Made by a program: the position numbers and the translations under genes. From an uncultured Desulfovibrio sp. (GTDB lineage: Bacteria > Desulfobacterota > Desulfovibrionia > Desulfovibrionales > Desulfovibrionaceae): DNA of 53,376 nt. The DNA lies in NCBI RefSeq assembly GCF_944324935.1, contig NZ_CALUYG010000017.1, positions 1-53,376 of the forward strand, written 5' to 3'. Every line of letters starts with the position of its first letter. Position 1 is the first letter of the stretch. The notes beneath the pieces are model-generated. The model searched no databases, was not told where the DNA came from, and saw only the letters and a program-made list of their open reading frames with translations. Below, in pieces: positions 14,968-22,715 of the stretch.

Positions 14968-15891
14968 ATGAAAGAGTTTACGCTTGCCGTGCACAGTCTG
15001 GGGAATATCGGCTGCAAGGTGGTGGAAGCCGCCCTTGCCGCCCCGGACTGCCGCTGCCTCGGCGTCATCCGCCGGGCCGATTCTCTGGGGACGCGCGCGC
15101 AGGATCTGCGCGGCCTGCCGGAATACGCCAGCCTTGCCGACCTGGAAGCGGCGCAGGGCCGCCCAGACGTCATCGCCCTCTGCGGCCCCTCCCGCAGCAT
15201 CCCCGATACGGCCGAAGCCTTCCTCCTCAAGGGATACAACTGTGTGGACAGCTTCGACATCCACACCGACATCCCGCAGAGCGTGGCCCGTCTGGACAAG
15301 GCGGCCCGCAGCGGCAAGGCCGTGAGCATCACCGCCGCCGGCTGGGACCCCGGGACGGACTCAGTCATGCGGGCCCTTTTTGAAGCCATGGCTCCCACGG
15401 GCGTGACCTTCACCAATTTCGGCCGCGGCCGCAGCATGGGCCATTCCGTGGCCGCCCGCGCCATCGAGGGCGTGGCCGATGCCGTGTCCATCACCATCCC
15501 CGTGGGCGGCGGCCGCCATTCGCGCCTCGTCTATGTGGTGCTGGAAGAAGGGCAGAACCTGGCCGACGTCACGGCCCGCATCAAGGCCGACGATTATTTC
15601 GCCCATGACCCGCTGGATGTGCGTCAGTGCCGCGACCGGCAGGAACTCTCCTTTGTGGCCGACCAGTCACACGGCGTCCTCATGGAACGCACCGGCGCCT
15701 CCGGCATGACGGACAACCAGATCCTCAAGTTCGACATGCGCATCAACAACCCCGCCCTCACGGCGCAGATCCTCGTCTCCTGCGCGCGTGCCGCCACGCG
15801 CATGGAAGCCGGCTGCCACACGCTCATCGACGTGCCGCCCATCAAGCTGCTGCCCGGCGAACGCATGGACATCATCACGCGCATGGTGTAG
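14968..15891 (+). CDS. ddh: Diaminopimelate dehydrogenase-type NADP-dependent enzyme
   Basis: This 307-aa protein has the nucleotide-binding start SLGNIG (residues 10-15), then CGPSRS, DSFDIHTDIP and the family segment AGWDPGTDS (around residue 125-133), with FGRGRSMGHS (about 152-161). These match meso-2,6-diaminopimelate D-dehydrogenase, which reductively aminates tetrahydrodipicolinate in one step of lysine and peptidoglycan synthesis. At 307 residues it is a little shorter than the corynebacterial enzyme. AAAGGA precedes the ATG. It is flanked by a terminator upstream and a repeat element downstream, so it is probably monocistronic. Action on another D-amino acid cannot be excluded. Confidence 0.8.
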   Translation: MKEFTLAVHSLGNIGCKVVEAALAAPDCRCLGVIRRADSLGTRAQDLRGLPEYASLADLEAAQGRPDVIALCGPSRSIPDTAEAFLLKGYNCVDSFDIHTDIPQSVARLDKAARSGKAVSITAAGWDPGTDSVMRALFEAMAPTGVTFTNFGRGRSMGHSVAARAIEGVADAVSITIPVGGGRHSRLVYVVLEEGQNLADVTARIKADDYFAHDPLDVRQCRDRQELSFVADQSHGVLMERTGASGMTDNQILKFDMRINNPALTAQILVSCARAATRMEAGCHTLIDVPPIKLLPGERMDIITRMV

Positions 15892-16991: not shown

Positions 16992-17657
16992 TCAGCGCCG
17001 AAAGCGCTGCATCTCCTCCCGCACCAGCTCAAGCCCGACCATGATGTTCTCCTGCAGCGTCGTCCGCAGCAAGTCGGCATCTTTGTTGCGCAGGGCGGCA
17101 ATGATGGTGGCGTGCTGCTGGTTGAACAGTTCCTTGTGCTCGGCGGAATAGGCCCGGAGCGTCAGGAATGCCTGCACGAAATCCATGAGGTGTTCCACCA
17201 CCGATACCAGGTGCGGCATGCGCGACAACTGGTAGAGGCGGTGGTGGAACTCCCTGTCCACATGGAAAAAATAGGTCTCTTCGCCGGCGGCTTCCATTTC
17301 CTTTGCCGTCTGCTCCAGCGCGTCCAGCTCCTGCGGCGTGGCCTGCCGCATGGCTTCCTCGGCCAGCGCCGCCTCCAGTTCGCAGCGCTGCTGGTAGATC
17401 AGCTCCATCTCCCGGTAGCCGGGCGGCAGCATGACGATGGCCCCCTTGTAGGGGATGTTCTGCACCAGCCCGGACTTGTCCAGCAGCAGCAGTGCGTCGC
17501 GAATGGGACCACGCCCGACCCCCAGCTGCTGTTCCAGATCCGTCAGGATCAGCCGCGTGCCGGGCAGGGCGCGCCCGCTCATAATCATGTCGCGTATCAT
17601 TTCATACGCCACAAGCGACTTTGTTGCGCTGTTTTTGCTCGCATCGTGTGATTTCAT
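16992..17657 (-). CDS. GntR-family (FadR/FCD subfamily) transcriptional regulator
   Basis: This 221-aa protein has an N-terminal winged helix (MIRDMIMSGRALPGTRL, then LEQQLGVGRGPIRDALLLLDKSGLV, residues 20-65). The C-terminal FCD ligand-binding helical domain carries the metal-type residues DREFHHRLY (about 137-145) and a later HATIIAALRNKD. It is divergent from the HisD/HpsN-type gene, and a regulator in this position usually controls the neighbouring catabolic genes and itself. The ATG at 17657 has no visible ribosome site and its promoter places the transcript start at or next to the ATG, so the message may be leaderless. The inducer is unknown; FCD domains bind small carboxylates. Confidence 0.9.
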   Translation of the reverse strand: MKSHDASKNSATKSLVAYEMIRDMIMSGRALPGTRLILTDLEQQLGVGRGPIRDALLLLDKSGLVQNIPYKGAIVMLPPGYREMELIYQQRCELEAALAEEAMRQATPQELDALEQTAKEMEAAGEETYFFHVDREFHHRLYQLSRMPHLVSVVEHLMDFVQAFLTLRAYSAEHKELFNQQHATIIAALRNKDADLLRTTLQENIMVGLELVREEMQRFRR

Positions 17658-17663
17658 GCAGGC

Positions 17664-17692
17664 TATATACGTTGGCTGACACGGGGGGTCAA
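17664..17692 (-). promoter_or_regulatory. Promoter of the GntR gene (leaderless arrangement)
   Basis: On the minus strand TTGACC (17692-17687), 17 bp, TATATA (17669-17664). The ATG begins 7 nt after the -10, where transcription should start. Confidence 0.65.
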
Positions 17693-17819
17693 TACGCCTC
17701 CCCCCCTTTCCCGGACGCGACGGCGCAGTCCCTGCTTCCGGTCGGCCGCACCCGGCGTCCGTTCCCGGATGCTTGGACGTATCATGTGCTACTTCCACAC
17801 GTTATTGACACAGAAAATT

Positions 17820-17843
17820 TTTCATAAAATATTTCATAAAATA
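17820..17843. promoter_or_regulatory. Candidate operator: 12-bp tandem repeat
   Basis: tttcataaaata occurs twice in exact tandem, directly before a -35 element, in the 355-bp divergent region (17658-18012) that otherwise holds no gene. It is strikingly AT-rich against a GC-rich background. A period of 12 bp puts the copies on nearly the same helix face. The binding protein is probably the divergent GntR regulator, by position only. Confidence 0.45.
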
Positions 17844-17872
17844 TTGACTTCCCGCGTGAGGAAGCCTAGGCT
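17844..17872 (+). promoter_or_regulatory. Promoter of the HpsN-type gene cluster
   Basis: TTGACT (17844-17849), 17 bp, TAGGCT (17867-17872). Another TTGACA lies at 17805-17810, followed 17 bp later by AATATT. The leader would be about 130 nt. Confidence 0.5.
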
Positions 17873-18012
17873 GATCTCAACGACAGGGAAACAGCCCCGA
17901 AGGGCAGCCGCCCTGCCCCGGACGGAAGGATCAAGCGCCCGCGACGTTTCGCCCGCTTTATCAGACCCAGAGGAAACACGCGCCACAGGCGCAGAGAGCA
18001 AGGAGAGTCGTC

Positions 18013-19323
18013 ATGCGTTACCTCAAGCAAGCCACCAAGTCAGCCGAAGGCAACAGCCGGGAAGCCCGCGCCGTCGTCGAACAGATGCTGGAAGACATCC
18101 GCGCGGGCCGTGAGGATACCGTGCGCGCCCTGGCCAGGAAATTCGACAAATGGGAACAGGAGTTCATCCTCAGCGACGCCAAGCGCGAGGAACTCATCGC
18201 CATGGTTCCTGAAAGCGTCAAGCGCGATCTGGAATTCGCCCACAGACAGGTTGCCGGCTTTGCGAAGGCCCAGCGCGAGAGCATCGGCGAATTCGCAACC
18301 GAAGTAACGCCCGGCGTGGTGCTGGGACAGCGCATCGTGCCCATGGATGTGGCCGGCTGCTATGTGCCCGGCGGCCGTTTTGCCCACGCCTGCTCGGCCA
18401 TTATGAGCGTGGCCACGGCCAAGGCCGCGGGCGTGCCCTTCATCGTGGCCGCCACCCCGCCCCGCGGCGAACACATCGACCCGGCCACCTGCTATGCCAT
18501 GCACATTTCCGGCGCGGACATCATCCTGGAAATGGGCGGCGTACAGGCCATCGCCAGCATGGCGTACGGTCTCTTTACCGGCAAGCCCGCCAACATCCTC
18601 GTCGGCCCGGGCAACGCCTATGTGGCCGAAGCCAAGGCCCTGCTGAGCGGTTCCGGCCTTTGCGGCATCGACGTCTTTGCCGGCCCCACGGAATCCGGCA
18701 TCATCGCCGAGGGAACGGCCGACCCCATGACCGTGGCCATCGACCTGGTCTCCCAGGCGGAGCATGGCTACAACTCGCCGGTCTGGCTCTTCACCACCAG
18801 CGAAGAGCTGGGCAACAAGGTGCTTGAGCTCATGCCCAAACTTTGCGCCGACATGCCCAACCCCGACGTGCCGCTGAGCGCCTGGCGCGATTACGGCGAG
18901 ATCGTCCTTTGCGACGACCGGGAAGAGATGGCCGCCGTCAGCGATCATTACGCGCCCGAGCACATCCAGGTCATGGCCGGAGATCTCGACTGGTGGCGCG
19001 CCCGTCTGCGCTGTTACGGCTCCCTCTTCCTTGGCGAAGGCAGCACCGTGCCGCATGGCGACAAGTGCTCCGGCACAAACCATATCCTGCCCACCAGGAA
19101 GGCCGCCTACTACAGCGGCGGGCTCAACGTGCACAAGTTCCTCAAGATATGCACCTATCAGCATATCGATCCCGACAGGAACGACGTCATCGGCGGTACG
19201 GCCTCCCGCCTGTCCCGGGTGGAAGGCATGGAAGGCCATGCCCGCGCCTGCGACTGGCGTCTGCGGAAGTTCTATCCCGGCCGGGAGTGGGACTTCCCCG
19301 TGTACGAGCATCCCGCGTACTAG
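18013..19323 (+). CDS. Histidinol dehydrogenase-family enzyme, HpsN-like (sulfonated alcohol dehydrogenase)
   Basis: This 436-aa protein belongs to the HisD family, which oxidises a primary alcohol to a carboxylate with two NAD+. The catalytic pair Glu316-His317 lies in APEHIQVM; HGDKCSGTNHILPT and YSGG follow the family pattern. It is not next to other his genes. The segments DWWRARLRCYGSLFLGEGST and AYYSGGLNVHKFLK resemble the HpsN branch, which oxidises 2,3-dihydroxypropane-1-sulfonate to sulfolactate. AGGAG is 7 nt before the ATG. The cluster next downstream holds an aminotransferase, a CuyA-like lyase and a racemase. The substrate could also be an amino-alcohol such as cysteinolate. The stop codon overlaps the end of a MITE-like element. 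Confidence 0.8.
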   Translation: MRYLKQATKSAEGNSREARAVVEQMLEDIRAGREDTVRALARKFDKWEQEFILSDAKREELIAMVPESVKRDLEFAHRQVAGFAKAQRESIGEFATEVTPGVVLGQRIVPMDVAGCYVPGGRFAHACSAIMSVATAKAAGVPFIVAATPPRGEHIDPATCYAMHISGADIILEMGGVQAIASMAYGLFTGKPANILVGPGNAYVAEAKALLSGSGLCGIDVFAGPTESGIIAEGTADPMTVAIDLVSQAEHGYNSPVWLFTTSEELGNKVLELMPKLCADMPNPDVPLSAWRDYGEIVLCDDREEMAAVSDHYAPEHIQVMAGDLDWWRARLRCYGSLFLGEGSTVPHGDKCSGTNHILPTRKAAYYSGGLNVHKFLKICTYQHIDPDRNDVIGGTASRLSRVEGMEGHARACDWRLRKFYPGREWDFPVYEHPAY

Positions 19324-19550
19324 GGCCTGTTAACACTATTTGCCGCCTGTTGGGGGGAAGGGAAACCCCTCCGCCAGCGCGGGAGCGGGTTTCCCTTCCC
19401 CCCAAGCCCCCCATCCCTTCCCCAGCGCGCTTTTACCGGAGAAGAGGCAGGAACACGTGGCAACCCCGCCCCCAAAAGCAAGCGGAGCGTGTACAGCTTA
19501 TTTGCTTTATATATTGAAATTATTTGTAAAATTTGTGTTAACAGGCCCTA
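19321..19550. mobile_element. 230-bp MITE-like element with 14-bp terminal inverted repeats and TA flanks
   Basis: tagggcctgttaacac (19321-19336) and its exact complement (19535-19550) face each other. Taking TA as a duplicated target, the element is GGGCCTGTTAACAC...GTGTTAACAGGCCC. Excision with one TA left would give TAC-TAA, so the insertion changed a TAA stop into TAG without altering the protein. It has no coding capacity. TA duplication is typical of IS630/Tc1-mariner-type and some IS5-group elements; the parent element is not in the window. It carries repeat copy B. Confidence 0.6.
19351..19437. repeat. GC-rich palindromic dispersed repeat, copy B
   Basis: The inverted arms ggggggaagggaaaccc (19352-19368) and its complement (19387-19403) form a perfect 17-bp stem with an 18-nt loop. 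They are followed by the same C-rich tail as copy A through agcgcgctttt. Relative to copy A, arm differences occur in pairs that keep base pairing. Confidence 0.75.
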
Positions 19551-19611
19551 AGATCGTCACAGCGACGGCAGGCATCCCCCCTGCCTGCCCACCACCCGCG
19601 AGGAATACGCC

Positions 19612-20814
19612 ATGAAGACATTCACCAAGGATTTCACCCTCCAGGAACCCATCCCCCAGGAAGGCATCGAACTGGCGCTCGGCGTCATGCGGACAGGCCG
19701 CCTGCACCGCTACAACACCCTGCCCGGCGAAAAGGGCTGCGCCGCCGAGCTGGAAGAGGCCTTTGCCGCCTACATGGGCTCCCGATACTGCCTTGCCTGC
19801 GCCTCCTGCGGCAGCGCGCTCTACATCGCGCTCAAGAGCCTGGGCGTCGAGGCCGGGGATACCGTCCTCTGCAACGCCTATACCCTGGCCCCCGTACCCG
19901 GGGCCATCGAGAATGCGGGCGGGAAGATCGAGCTTGTGGAGATCATGGACGACTATACCATAGATATAGCCGACCTGGATGCCAAGGCCGCCCGGACCGG
20001 CGCGCGCTTCTTCCTGCTTTCGCACATGCGCGGCCATATGGCCGATATGGACAAGGTCATGGAGGTCGTGCGCAAGCATAACCTCATCCTGCTGGAAGAC
20101 TGCGCCCACACCATGGGCGGCACCTGGAACGGCAAAAAGAGCGGCACGTTCGGCCATGCGGCCTGCTACAGCACCCAGACGTACAAGCATATGAATTCCG
20201 GCGAAGGCGGCCTGCTCATCACCAACGACGACCTGGTCATGGCCCGCGCCATCATGTACTCCGGCTCCTACATGCTCTACACCGCGCACACGGCCCGGCC
20301 GGACGCCGCCGTCTTCGAGAAGGTGAAGAAGATCACGCCGAACTTCAGCTCGCGCATGGACAATCTGCGCGCCGCGCTGCTGCTGCCGCAACTGAAGCTC
20401 CTCGACGAACGATGTCGCCGCTGGAACGTGCTGCATGATCACATGGCCGCCCGGCTCACGGCCATCCCCGGCGTCATCTGCCCGCGGCGCGACCCCCGTG
20501 AAGGCTATGTGGGCAGCTCCATCCAGTGGAACCTGCCCAAGGCCGGCTATGCCGACATCGAGACCTTCATAGCCAGGTGCGGCGAGCGCGGCGTCTCCGT
20601 CAAGTGGTTCGGCAACAAGGAACCCAGCGGCTTCACCAGCGCCTACGACAGCTGGCAGTACTTCCCCTATCTGGCCACGCTCGACCTGCCCGCCACCCGG
20701 CGCGTACTGGCCACCATGTGCGACATGCGCCTGCCCCTGACCTTCACCGTCGAGGACTGCGACGCCATCGCCGACATCATTGCCGAGGTCATCACGGAAA
20801 TGGATCTGCGCTGA
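19612..20814 (+). CDS. DegT/DnrJ/EryC1/StrS-family PLP aminotransferase
   Basis: This 400-aa fold-type I enzyme has the PLP lysine at residue 192 in TYKHMNSGEGG, preceded by LLEDCAHTMGG with the pyridine-binding Asp. It has the N-terminal CASCGSALYIALKSLG segment of the family. Members transfer an amino group from glutamate to keto sugars or related carbonyls. Here it sits between a dehydrogenase and a CuyA-like lyase, not in a sugar cluster. A role on a sulfonated C3 carbonyl, or in exchanging amino groups with cysteate, is therefore inferred. GAGGA precedes the ATG. The 288-bp gap before it is filled by the MITE-like element, so it may be transcribed from its own or the upstream promoter. 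Confidence 0.85.
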   Translation: MKTFTKDFTLQEPIPQEGIELALGVMRTGRLHRYNTLPGEKGCAAELEEAFAAYMGSRYCLACASCGSALYIALKSLGVEAGDTVLCNAYTLAPVPGAIENAGGKIELVEIMDDYTIDIADLDAKAARTGARFFLLSHMRGHMADMDKVMEVVRKHNLILLEDCAHTMGGTWNGKKSGTFGHAACYSTQTYKHMNSGEGGLLITNDDLVMARAIMYSGSYMLYTAHTARPDAAVFEKVKKITPNFSSRMDNLRAALLLPQLKLLDERCRRWNVLHDHMAARLTAIPGVICPRRDPREGYVGSSIQWNLPKAGYADIETFIARCGERGVSVKWFGNKEPSGFTSAYDSWQYFPYLATLDLPATRRVLATMCDMRLPLTFTVEDCDAIADIIAEVITEMDLR

Positions 20815-20880
20815 TGCGCCGCCTCGTCCGCTTTCGCGCCCGCTTTTTCATCCTCCAACCCAAGCATTGAGGTTTTCAGC

Positions 20881-21882
20881 ATGAATCTCGCCAAATTCCC
20901 CCGTCGCGGCTATGTCACCGACCCCACCCCCCTCGAATATCTGCCCAACTTCAGCAAGGCGCTGGGCGGCAAGGTCAGCATCTACATCAAGCGTGACGAC
21001 CTCCTGCCCGGGACGGCGGGCGGCAACAAGACCCGCAAGCTGGACTTCGTCATGGCCGATGCCCTGGCGCAGGGGGCCGACACCATCATCACCTGCGGCG
21101 CCGTCCAGTCCAACCACTGCCGCCTGACCCTCTCCTGGGCCGTCAAGGAAGGGCTGGACTGCCACCTGGTGCTGGAAGAACGCGTGAAGAACAGCTATCA
21201 TCCCGAGGCCTCGGGCAACAACTTCCTCTTCCAGCTGCTGGGCGTGAAGAGCATCACCGTCGTGCCCGGCGGCAGCAACATGATGGAAGAAATGGGCAAG
21301 GTGGCCGACCAGCTCAAGGCGCAGGGCAAAAAGCCCTACATCGTGCCCGGCGGCGCATCCAACAAGATCGGCGCTCTCGGCTATGTGAGCTGCGCCGAGG
21401 AGACCCTCCGCCAGCTTTTCGACATGGGGCTCAACATCGATCACATGGTCGTGCCCAGCGGCAGCGCCGGGACCCATGCCGGCATCATCGCGGGCATGTT
21501 CGGCAACAATGCGGGCATCCCGGTGACCGGCATCGGCGTCAATCGTCCCAAGCCCGTGCAGGAAGCGGCCGTGCACAAGCTGGCACAGGAAACGCTGGAC
21601 TACATCGGCGCCGGCGTGACCCTGCCCGCCGAAAAGGTGGTGGCTTTCGACGACTATGTGGGCCCCGGCTACTCCCTGCCCACCGACAGCATGGTGGAAG
21701 CCGTGAAACTGCTGGCCCGGACCGAAGGCATCCTGCTCGACCCGGTGTACTCCGGCAAGGCCATGGCCGGCCTCATCGACCTCGTGCGCAAGGGCCATTT
21801 CGCCGACGGCAGCAAGGTGCTCTTCCTGCATACCGGCGGCTCCCCGGCCCTGTACGCCTACCTTGACACCTTCCGCAAGTAA
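20881..21882 (+). CDS. PLP-dependent lyase of the D-cysteine desulfhydrase / L-cysteate sulfo-lyase (CuyA) family
   Basis: This 333-aa fold-type II enzyme of the ACC deaminase family has PLP Lys50 in GGNKTRKL, the substrate loop AVQSNHCRL, and SAGTHAG binding phosphate. Either cysteine desulfhydration to pyruvate, ammonia and sulfide, or cysteate cleavage to pyruvate, ammonia and sulfite, fits the fold. The segments VPGGASNKIGALGYV, GIGVNRPKPVQEAAVHKLAQ and DPVYSGKAMAGLIDLVRKGHF look closer to what I recall of CuyA than of E. coli DcyD; I could not run the comparison. Its neighbours, an HpsN-like dehydrogenase and an aspartate racemase-like gene, support cysteate, the sulfonate analogue of aspartate. 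GAGG precedes the ATG by 8 nt. Confidence 0.82.
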   Translation: MNLAKFPRRGYVTDPTPLEYLPNFSKALGGKVSIYIKRDDLLPGTAGGNKTRKLDFVMADALAQGADTIITCGAVQSNHCRLTLSWAVKEGLDCHLVLEERVKNSYHPEASGNNFLFQLLGVKSITVVPGGSNMMEEMGKVADQLKAQGKKPYIVPGGASNKIGALGYVSCAEETLRQLFDMGLNIDHMVVPSGSAGTHAGIIAGMFGNNAGIPVTGIGVNRPKPVQEAAVHKLAQETLDYIGAGVTLPAEKVVAFDDYVGPGYSLPTDSMVEAVKLLARTEGILLDPVYSGKAMAGLIDLVRKGHFADGSKVLFLHTGGSPALYAYLDTFRK

Positions 21883-21929
21883 CGCTTGCAACCTGCCGGG
21901 GCGGCCACGCCGTCCCGGCAGCCTCAGGG

Positions 21930-22715
21930 ATGACCCGCATGTCTTCGCAGCAGCCCCCCTCCATCGGCGTCCTCGGCGGTCTCGGCCCCTATGCGGGCCT
22001 GGATCTGGTGCACAAGATCTTTGATTGCTGCCCTGCCCACCGGGATCAGGATCACCTCCCCGTCATGCTCTACTCCTTCCCCAACGAGATCCCGCCCCGG
22101 GTGGAATTCCTGCTGGGCAGCAGCCCGGACAATCCCGGCCATGCCATGGGGGAGATCATGGTACGGCTGGCGCAGGCCGGGGCCACGGTCATCGGCATGC
22201 CCTGCAACACGGCGCACAGCGCCCCCATGCTGGACGTGGCCCTCGCGCGCCTGAAGGCCTCCGGCTTTACCGGACGCTTCATCCACATGATCACGGCCAC
22301 CGCGGACCATCTGCGGAAGACCTTCCCCGGGGCCCGCCGCATCGGCGTCCTCTGCACGCAGGGCGCCTACGCCTCGCAGGTGTTCACCCGGCATTTCCAG
22401 GCGGCGGGGCTGGAGGTCCTCTATCCCGACGAAGCCGGACGCGACGCCCTGCAACACGCCATCAGCGATCCGGCCTTCGGCATCAAGGCCTTTTCCCAGC
22501 CCGTCACCGAACGGGCGCGTACGGCCATCGCGGCCCAGGCCGAAAGCCTGCGCGCCCGGCAGGCGGACGTCATCCTGCTCGGCTGCACCGAACTGCCGCT
22601 GGCGCTGGAAGGCAAGGATTTCCAGGGCATTCCGCTTGTGGATCCCACACGCGTGCTGGCGCGCCGCCTTGTCGAGGCCTTCGCTCCCGACATTCTGCGC
22701 CCCGACGCCGGATAA
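21930..22715 (+). CDS. Aspartate/glutamate racemase family protein (YgeA-like)
   Basis: This 261-aa cofactor-independent racemase family member has both catalytic cysteines: Cys92 in PCNTAH and Cys219 in GCTELPL. The N-terminal GVLGGLGPYAGLDL is the family start. It would interconvert D and L forms of an acidic amino acid such as aspartate. In this operon a D/L-cysteate racemase is an attractive alternative because cysteate mimics aspartate. The start is ATG 21930 (an ATG nine bases later is also possible) with CAGGG upstream. It follows the lyase by 47 bp and ends the four-gene set. Confidence 0.85.
   Translation: MTRMSSQQPPSIGVLGGLGPYAGLDLVHKIFDCCPAHRDQDHLPVMLYSFPNEIPPRVEFLLGSSPDNPGHAMGEIMVRLAQAGATVIGMPCNTAHSAPMLDVALARLKASGFTGRFIHMITATADHLRKTFPGARRIGVLCTQGAYASQVFTRHFQAAGLEVLYPDEAGRDALQHAISDPAFGIKAFSQPVTERARTAIAAQAESLRARQADVILLGCTELPLALEGKDFQGIPLVDPTRVLARRLVEAFAPDILRPDAG

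What the first reader, a model, noticed from the sequence alone, without database searches (positions are those of the whole stretch)
16992..22715. GntR-controlled HpsN-DegT-CuyA-racemase cluster: possible sulfonate-to-sulfite pathway
Seen: a GntR/FCD regulator divergent from an HisD-family dehydrogenase outside any his context, a DegT aminotransferase, a CuyA/D-cysteine desulfhydrase-type lyase and an Asp/Glu racemase with both cysteines. Known: HpsN (HisD family) oxidises DHPS to sulfolactate, and CuyA splits L-cysteate into pyruvate, ammonia and sulfite. Inferred: the genes make one pathway. HisD-type enzymes naturally oxidise 2-amino alcohols, so cysteinolate to cysteate is a direct chemical analogue of histidinol to histidine. 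Cysteate resembles aspartate, so the racemase could turn D-cysteate into the L form for the lyase. Sulfite would be the respiratory electron acceptor. I know of no description of this exact gene set.
Basis: partly seen in the sequence, partly recalled or inferred. Interest (0 to 1): 0.78.

Follow-up and report, generated by a model that had tools for sequence, protein, structure and literature searches.

The report
Operon predicted to degrade algal cysteinolate
Four enzyme genes in this Desulfovibrio-like bacterium, with similar sets in many marine bacteria, probably turn cysteinolate, an abundant algal sulfur compound, into pyruvate, ammonia and sulfite; I found no published breakdown route for it in the papers I could search.

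Summary
The genes are there as described: a GntR/FCD regulator (16992-17657, -) and hpsN-like, degT, cuyA and cuyB-like genes (18013-22715, +). The dehydrogenase is HpsN-type; a separate HisD lies elsewhere in the genome. Similar clusters are widespread; on 6 of 9 plasmids opened, a sulfite/sulfate exporter is annotated nearby. First, 75 loci with Gln/His-type HpsN have CuyA 40, CuyB 42, HpsO/HpsP 0; 26 with Glu/Thr/Ser-type have HpsO 14, HpsP 13, CuyA/CuyB 0. Second, that residue (window Gln319, two after the catalytic His) follows context: Gln/His in 63 of 64 copies near CuyA, CuyB or DegT, Thr/Glu/Ser in 43 of 43 near DHPS genes, 44 of 44 in places not used to find it; yet only 3 contrasts are independent (p 0.25). 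A palindrome, ATTTYATRAAAT (17819-17842), recurs at 12 of 13 distinct GntR-type and 0 of 19 LysR-type loci. DegT's step is unresolved (fused to HpsN in one MAG; an iron alcohol dehydrogenase stands in its place in five genomes). Nothing was assayed. Verdict: a new variant of known sulfonate-to-sulfite operons, probably for cysteinolate.

The parts
16992..17657 (-). GntR/FCD transcriptional regulator, divergent (ORF opens at 17798; likely start Met at 17657)
   Evidence: PF00392, PF07729; relatives at related clusters; start
17819..17842 (.). Tandem ATTTYATRAAAT-type palindromes, predicted GntR operator
   Evidence: 2 matches with up to 1 mismatch in 53 kb, 0.08 expected; exact matches at 12 of 13 distinct GntR-type HpsN loci, 0 of 19 LysR-type
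17844..17872 (+). Promoter-like TTGACT-17-TAGGCT abutting the operator (inferred by eye; not reported by the scan)
   Evidence: sequence
18013..19323 (+). HpsN-like, HisD-fold sulfonate alcohol dehydrogenase; GRFAH with His125, Gln248, His251, Glu316, His317, Gln319, Asp350, Lys351, His409
19612..20814 (+). DegT-family aminotransferase, Lys192, HMRG motif
20881..21882 (+). CuyA, D-cysteate sulfo-lyase (PLP)
   Evidence: NF052482 537 bits, cut-off 450
21930..22715 (+). CuyB-like Asp/Glu racemase, diverged
   Evidence: NF052483 190.3 bits, cut-off 190; Cys92 and Cys219; 25-28% to the CuyBs of L016, L017, L019
22904..22937 (+). Terminator-like hairpin between the racemase and rpoB
   Evidence: consensus match only; 8 found, 5.3 expected in the region

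Best explanation
A GntR-controlled operon that breaks down cysteinolate (2-amino-3-hydroxypropane-1-sulfonate). The HpsN-type enzyme oxidises the primary alcohol by four electrons (NAD+) to cysteate, as HisD does with histidinol and HpsN with DHPS. The racemase interconverts L- and D-cysteate. CuyA splits D-cysteate into pyruvate, ammonia and sulfite (via 2-aminoacrylate, which RidA would hydrolyse where its gene is present; recalled chemistry). In this organism the sulfite goes to dissimilatory sulfite reductase. DegT most likely transaminates at C2 and links 3-hydroxy-2-oxopropanesulfonate with cysteinolate (or sulfopyruvate with cysteate), widening the entry. Shown by calls: families, conserved linkage, operator, residue switch, a dsrA gene. 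Inferred: the substrate, every reaction in this organism, DegT's role.
For: HpsN rather than HisD; sulfonate-binding His and Lys kept (roles from PMC11382572). L-cysteate binds CpHpsN like its product. Mutually exclusive neighbours (with bit-score thresholds): 75 Gln/His-type loci have CuyA 40, CuyB 42, HpsO 0, HpsP 0, SlcD 0, ComC 0; 26 Glu/Thr/Ser-type loci have HpsO 14, HpsP 13, CuyA 0, CuyB 0. Residue 321 follows context in 106 of 107 labelled copies, or 92 of 92 if DegT alone is not counted as context, and in 44 of 44 places not used to find the rule, none over 95% identical to those that were. Paracoccus seriniphilus carries both versions on two plasmids. Clusters with HpsN, CuyA and CuyB but no DegT at the locus; five genomes of the same order with the iron alcohol dehydrogenase version have no DegT match at E<=1e-60. 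All 9 DegT-positive of 199 genomes have HpsN (18 of 199) and CuyA (52 of 199). Exporters near 6 of 9 plasmid clusters. DsrA.
Against: No enzyme data. The residue switch has only 3 phylogenetically independent contrasts (2.7 of 3 agree on average, 3 of 3 with CuyA/CuyB contexts only; sign test p 0.25), and this genome's HisD, which takes an amine, has Glu there, so the residue gives no simple chemical reason. One DegT-linked HpsN (L087) has Glu. A remote clade (L118, L120, L121, L237-L239) has Gln without CuyA nearby. 18 of the 62 distinct fresh places had no marker at all (H 7, Q 6, T 5). An HpsO-like gene (53%) lies between CuyA and DegT in L029, a locus without HpsN. In G120 the only HpsN is DHPS-type and its DegT stands alone. 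This genome also has SuyB (72%), so a DHPS-sulfolactate route is possible. Taurinivorans muris has hpsN and cuyA but did not grow on DHPS or cysteate (PMC10507020, passages). No transporter lies at the locus here, unlike two close relatives. The racemase is only 0.3 bits over its cut-off. DegT is not needed by the scheme.
Confidence: 0.57

Rival explanations
1. DHPS route: HpsN oxidises R-DHPS to sulfolactate, an unlinked dehydrogenase makes sulfopyruvate, DegT is the missing sulfopyruvate:cysteate aminotransferase (Coa), then CuyB and CuyA.
For: HpsN is known for DHPS, and the CuyA branch of that route is described with Coa and CuyB genes unknown in R. pomeroyi (PMC11382572). DegT is fused to HpsN in L062 and its family is near-universal in Rhodobacterales, 134 of 149 genomes. 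SuyB in this genome. HpsO-like gene beside CuyA and DegT in L029.
Against: 0 of 75 Gln/His-type loci have HpsO, HpsP, ComC or SlcD over threshold; five genomes with HpsN and CuyA have no DegT match; window residue 321 differs from all 43 DHPS-context copies.
Confidence: 0.21
2. Cysteinolate is first transaminated by DegT to 3-hydroxy-2-oxopropanesulfonate; HpsN oxidises this ketone's alcohol to sulfopyruvate, which DegT re-aminates to cysteate.
For: HpsN-DegT is a tight gene pair, fused in one MAG. DegT enzymes classically aminate ketones (family knowledge, recalled).
Against: Genomes with the cluster but no DegT match. HpsN chemistry on a 2-keto alcohol is not described in what I read.
Confidence: 0.1
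3. A cysteate or D-cysteine operon in which the dehydrogenase and DegT serve an unrelated step.
For: CuyA with or without CuyB, without HpsN nearby, is seen repeatedly.
Against: Conserved joint linkage across phyla and transporter types, shared operator, phyletic co-occurrence; desulfhydrase equivalog models below cut-off.
Confidence: 0.12

Closest known systems
HpsN, R-DHPS 3-dehydrogenase (C. pinatubonensis; PDB 8v35)
   Same: 53% identity to the C. pinatubonensis HN-2 copy; same family, Zn, catalytic and sulfonate-binding residues
   Different: Gln at 321 and Thr at 226 instead of Glu and Ser; no HpsO, HpsP, SuyAB, SlcD or ComDE beside it
CuyA/CuyB cysteate dissimilation (JBC 2024 300:107371; not held, known here only from its citation in PMC11382572 and NCBIfam names)
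   Same: CuyA well over and racemase just over the curated cut-offs
   Different: Extended by an HpsN-type dehydrogenase and DegT; racemase diverged
HpsN-CuyA branch of DHPS breakdown (R. pomeroyi type, PMC11382572, passages)
   Same: Both genes in one genome, CuyA end reaction
   Different: That route uses HpsNOP, SlcD and an unknown aminotransferase; here none of HpsO, HpsP, SlcD is linked
Histidinol dehydrogenase (HisD)
   Same: Family PF00815, passes the NCBIfam hisD model; amino-alcohol to amino-acid chemistry as a model
   Different: 33% identity to this genome's own HisD, which lacks the His and Lys at 126 and 353

Membership tests
HpsN (sulfopropanediol 3-dehydrogenase) | GRY(A/S)H motif with sulfonate-binding His126, and Lys353 | tested here: met
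   GRFAH (Tyr to Phe) and GDK in the window
HpsN (sulfopropanediol 3-dehydrogenase) | Linked HpsO/HpsP pair or sulfolactate-processing enzymes | tested here: not met
   none in the window cluster; 0 of 75 Gln/His-type loci have HpsO or HpsP over threshold
HpsN (sulfopropanediol 3-dehydrogenase) | Oxidises R-DHPS to R-sulfolactate | not testable with these tools
   no assay
HisD (histidinol dehydrogenase) | NCBIfam TIGR00069 cut-off | tested here: met
   385.3 bits, cut-off 243.8; plasmid HpsNs beside HpsO and HpsP are also annotated hisD
HisD (histidinol dehydrogenase) | Closer to true HisD than to HpsN; GSAPL-type motif in place of GRY(A/S)H | tested here: not met
   own HisD is on another contig
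CuyA (D-cysteate sulfo-lyase) | Curated NCBIfam equivalog cut-off | tested here: met
   537.4 bits, cut-off 450
CuyA (D-cysteate sulfo-lyase) | Releases sulfite from cysteate | not testable with these tools
   no assay
CuyB (cysteate racemase) | Curated NCBIfam equivalog cut-off | tested here: inconclusive
   190.3 bits, cut-off 190; 25-28% to the CuyBs of L016, L017, L019
CuyB (cysteate racemase) | Two catalytic cysteines | tested here: met
   Cys92, Cys219
DegT aminotransferase | PLP-binding lysine | tested here: met
   Lys192; motif in 85 of 85 members of the cluster
D-cysteine desulfhydrase (DcyD) | NCBIfam desulfhydrase equivalog cut-offs | tested here: not met
   308.5/429, 289.3/610, 288.1/469 bits; the wider subfamily model TIGR01275 is met, 313.1/289.4

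The most novel reading that the evidence does not exclude
A widespread, horizontally moving cysteinolate pathway, undescribed in the papers I could search: HpsN has switched between DHPS and cysteinolate (perhaps with opposite handedness, since the algal compound is named as the D form and would give D-cysteate, CuyA's own substrate) at least three times, marked by one position beside the catalytic histidine, and versions with demethylating enzymes take N-methylated forms.
Probability: 0.5. Interest if true: 0.75.

Novelty: new variant of a known kind. Interest (0 to 1): 0.62.

Why it matters
Cysteinolate reaches cell contents like those of DMSP and DHPS in marine algae (PMC8703288, passages), yet nine searches of the open-licence library listed no bacterial breakdown route; of the 22 papers with the word I opened passages of four. 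If right, genes now annotated hisD, hpsN and D-cysteine desulfhydrase in many genomes mark a flow from algal sulfonate to sulfite, and to sulfide in sulfite reducers. It would also keep DHPS use from being over-counted from hpsN alone, and residue 321 makes the split testable. It might bear on the R. pomeroyi puzzle of cysteate-transporter transcripts rising beside a diatom that released no detectable cysteate (PMC8027193, passage); its cuyA locus, though, has no HpsN within 8 kb.

Tried and rejected
Rejected: true HisD, although the NCBIfam hisD model is passed. Rejected: DcyD. Found weak: operons without a local DegT in Rhodobacterales as proof that DegT is dispensable, because 134 of 149 genomes of that order carry the family elsewhere, one clade mostly at a glmS/glmU locus; the argument is kept only for the five genomes of the window's order without a DegT match. 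Tried: Tyr/Phe of the GR(Y/F)AH motif as a specificity mark; it follows lineage, not context. Tried: position 226; it separates the Desulfovibrionales and C. pinatubonensis DHPS copies but not the alpha-proteobacterial ones. Tried: the HpsN tree as a two-clade split; the groups are interleaved (5 changes among the 61 rows labelled D, C or O of 74; 3 changes among 107 labelled of 136 rows). The phylum-wide HpsN search gave 6 of 395 genomes and one new labelled place, L174. Considered, not run: structure prediction of DegT, since coordinates are not returned.

Full report
What is there. The window (contig C17 of a 2.7 Mb genome in 89 contigs) holds, between cheW and rpoB, a divergent GntR/FCD gene and four genes on the + strand: an HpsN-like HisD-fold dehydrogenase, a DegT aminotransferase, CuyA and an Asp/Glu racemase. 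Spacers are 355, 288, 66 and 47 bases, with a terminator-like hairpin before rpoB. The best two loci of the named genome collection are a Desulfovibrio MAG and a Mailhella MAG. A dsrA gene is in the genome, so sulfite could be respired.

The dehydrogenase is HpsN-type. Its best solved relatives are sulfopropanediol 3-dehydrogenases (502 bits) against 214 bits for the best HisD; this genome has a separate HisD, 33% identical. The NCBIfam hisD model is nevertheless passed (385 bits, cut-off 244), and HpsNs beside HpsO/HpsP on plasmids are annotated hisD as well. The Zn ligands, the catalytic Glu-His pair and Asp, and the sulfonate-binding His126 and Lys353 of C. pinatubonensis HpsN (roles from PMC11382572, sections read) are all kept.

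The gene set is widespread. Among 89 loci clustered by gene (selected by DegT, so biased towards it) DegT was called in 85, HpsN in 40, CuyA in 27, CuyB in 23, TRAP large permease in 17, RidA in 7 and this GntR in 7. I opened 9 of these 10 (Ensifer adhaerens was not opened): they show compact operons such as LysR, CuyA-DegT-CuyB-TauABC-HpsN, and 6 of the 9 have an annotated sulfite or 'putative sulfate' exporter in the stretch. The eleventh, Roseovarius W115 (38% identity), has no HpsN within 9 kb, though a D-cysteine desulfhydrase-family gene lies 5.5 kb away. In one Phycisphaeraceae MAG contig HpsN and DegT form one 821-aa ORF. In the order of the window's genome, 9 of 199 genomes have DegT, 18 HpsN and 52 CuyA, and all 9 DegT genomes have both others (chance 4e-11 and 3e-6 without correction for kinship; I take the three draws of 199 to be the same genomes, as the handles shown agree). 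In one of the nine, G120, the HpsN is of the DHPS kind and DegT stands alone.

DHPS or cysteinolate? Known HpsN routes use HpsO/HpsP and then SuyAB, ComDE/Xsc, or SlcD plus an unknown aminotransferase and CuyA (PMC11382572, passages). If that last route were encoded here, sulfolactate dehydrogenases should sit near CuyA-linked HpsNs. Over the score thresholds they do not: of 75 loci whose HpsN has Gln or His at position 321, 40 have CuyA, 42 CuyB, 48 DegT, and none HpsO, HpsP, ComC, SlcD or ComDE; one has SuyB in a neighbouring operon (L157), and one (L099) has an SDR that hits HpsO at 78 bits, under the threshold of 140. Of 26 loci with Glu, Thr or Ser there, 14 have HpsO, 13 HpsP, none CuyA or CuyB, one DegT (L087). 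An exception outside this count: L029, a locus without HpsN, has an HpsO-like gene (53%, 254 bits) between CuyA and DegT; that could mean that DegT takes the ketone that HpsO makes. Paracoccus seriniphilus carries both kinds on two plasmids; G193, G034 and G169 each carry one HpsN of each residue type. HpsN with CuyA and CuyB but no DegT beside them occurs in Ruegeria SCSIO 43209 and in L213, L223, L225 and L233. Five genomes of the window's order (G010, G015, G022, G032, G035) have HpsN followed by an iron alcohol dehydrogenase and TRAP genes, with RidA and CuyA in the same cluster in four (G015's contig ends before; its CuyA is on another contig) and CuyB in three, and none of the five has a DegT match at E<=1e-60. 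The simplest chemistry that feeds CuyB and CuyA straight from an HpsN reaction is cysteinolate to cysteate.

The residue switch. In the tree of 74 sequences the two context groups are interleaved. One column separates them: two residues after the catalytic His319 (CpHpsN numbering; window Gln319). I found the rule on one set, wrote it down and tested it on new places, from 149 Rhodobacterales genomes of which 107 have HpsN plus one place: 33 distinct DHPS-context places had Thr 31, Ser 1, Glu 1; 6 CuyA/DegT-context places and 5 with CuyB alone (a context added afterwards) had His. None of these 44 is over 95% identical to a sequence used to find the rule, and at 90% identity they form 36 clusters. 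18 further distinct places had no marker nearby (His 7, Gln 6, Thr 5). In all, 63 of 64 and 43 of 43 labelled copies follow the rule (Fisher 3e-29 without correction for kinship); counting only CuyA/CuyB contexts, 49 of 49 and 43 of 43. With kinship taken into account there are only three independent contrasts; they agree (2.7 of 3 on average, 3 of 3 with CuyA/CuyB only), which cannot be significant (p 0.25). This genome's HisD has Glu there, so I claim a marker, not a mechanism; I have no coordinates and cannot say how far the side chain is from the substrate.

Control. Palindromes of the form ATTTYATRAAAT lie just before TTGACT-17-TAGGCT in the window. Exact copies occur at 13 of 14 rows in which this GntR gene was found (12 of 13 distinct places; L019 lacks it), mostly 36-195 bases before HpsN or before the transporter gene, and at 0 of 19 rows with the LysR gene; of the other 43 rows three have one match: L168, whose contig ends before any GntR, and L163 and L166, far from HpsN in A+T-rich DNA. 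One match also lies in L169, a CuyA locus without HpsN. The iron-alcohol-dehydrogenase version shares the operator, which suggests the same inducer.

Stereochemistry. In the literature it is the other way: CuyB interconverts the two and CuyA prefers D (PMC11382572). The algal compound is cited as 2-L-amino-3-hydroxy-1-propanesulfonic acid and as D-cysteinolic acid (titles in the reference list of PMC8703288); by my own reasoning its direct oxidation would give D-cysteate. HpsN of C. pinatubonensis is selective for R-DHPS, which by the same reasoning corresponds to the L form, so a D-selective relative would have had to change handedness. That is untested.

DegT. It keeps the PLP lysine (85 of 85 members of the cluster) and has Arg in an HMRG motif in all 79 in which the motif search hit (6 gave no hit), where the five solved relatives shown have HLYG or HLFG. 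I suggest transamination of a C3 ketosulfonate but cannot choose between 3-hydroxy-2-oxopropanesulfonate and sulfopyruvate.

Limits. The racemase is borderline (190.3 against 190 bits) and only 25-28% identical to the CuyBs of L016, L017 and L019. The amino-acid permease between GntR and HpsN in two close relatives (L012, L013) is absent here; the genome's best matches to it are 46-47%. SuyB is present elsewhere, next to a gene that looks by eye like a dicarboxylate symporter. T. muris, with hpsN and cuyA, did not grow on DHPS or cysteate (PMC10507020, passages). Papers: passages or sections only were seen of PMC11382572, PMC11131964, PMC10507020, PMC8703288, PMC6278857, PMC9594981, PMC9695272, PMC12636525, PMC8027193, PMC11489063 and PMC9870897; none was read whole.

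Noticed in passing
L102, L106, L109, L047, L052, L056, L076, L079, L211, L212, L217, L218: A GcvT-domain FAD oxidoreductase of the dimethylglycine/sarcosine type (no NCBIfam model over its cut-off for L217), in some with MttB-like, ETF, FolD or PurU genes, sits beside or near HpsN, DegT or CuyA: perhaps for N-methylated cysteinolate. One Thr-type locus (L236) has such hits too.
   Followed up: partly
L067, L073, L089, L092, L093, L096, L098 and L257-L276: A DegT of this family is present in 134 of 149 Rhodobacterales genomes; one clade of 22 rows, 17 of them beside glmS/glmU: a near-core gene of unknown function.
   Followed up: partly
L156-L159, L168: Variant cluster HpsN - iron alcohol dehydrogenase - TRAP - RidA - CuyA, in some with an aldehyde ferredoxin oxidoreductase or aldehyde dehydrogenase and CuyB; same operator, no DegT.
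   Followed up: partly
L240 (and L241): Gln-type HpsN beside three genes that look like SoeABC (recalled; no family over cut-off) and, in L240, an Xsc over its cut-off.
   Followed up: partly
L062 6726-9167: HpsN-DegT in-frame ORF of 821 aa in a Phycisphaeraceae MAG contig.
   Followed up: partly
L029: HpsO-like gene (53%) between CuyA and DegT, no HpsN in the stretch: a hint that DegT may use the ketone made by HpsO.
   Followed up: no
L015, L020: Lone DegT matching only from about residue 64 on, in G120 and in a Desulfovibrio MAG; G120's HpsN is elsewhere, beside SuyAB.
   Followed up: no
L173: Second CuyA in a close relative (G113) with its own CuyB, a GltP/DctA-like symporter (below cut-off) and another GntR: a separate, probably cysteate, unit.
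   Followed up: partly
14968-15891: Diaminopimelate dehydrogenase gene upstream of cheW (TIGR01921 over cut-off).
   Followed up: no
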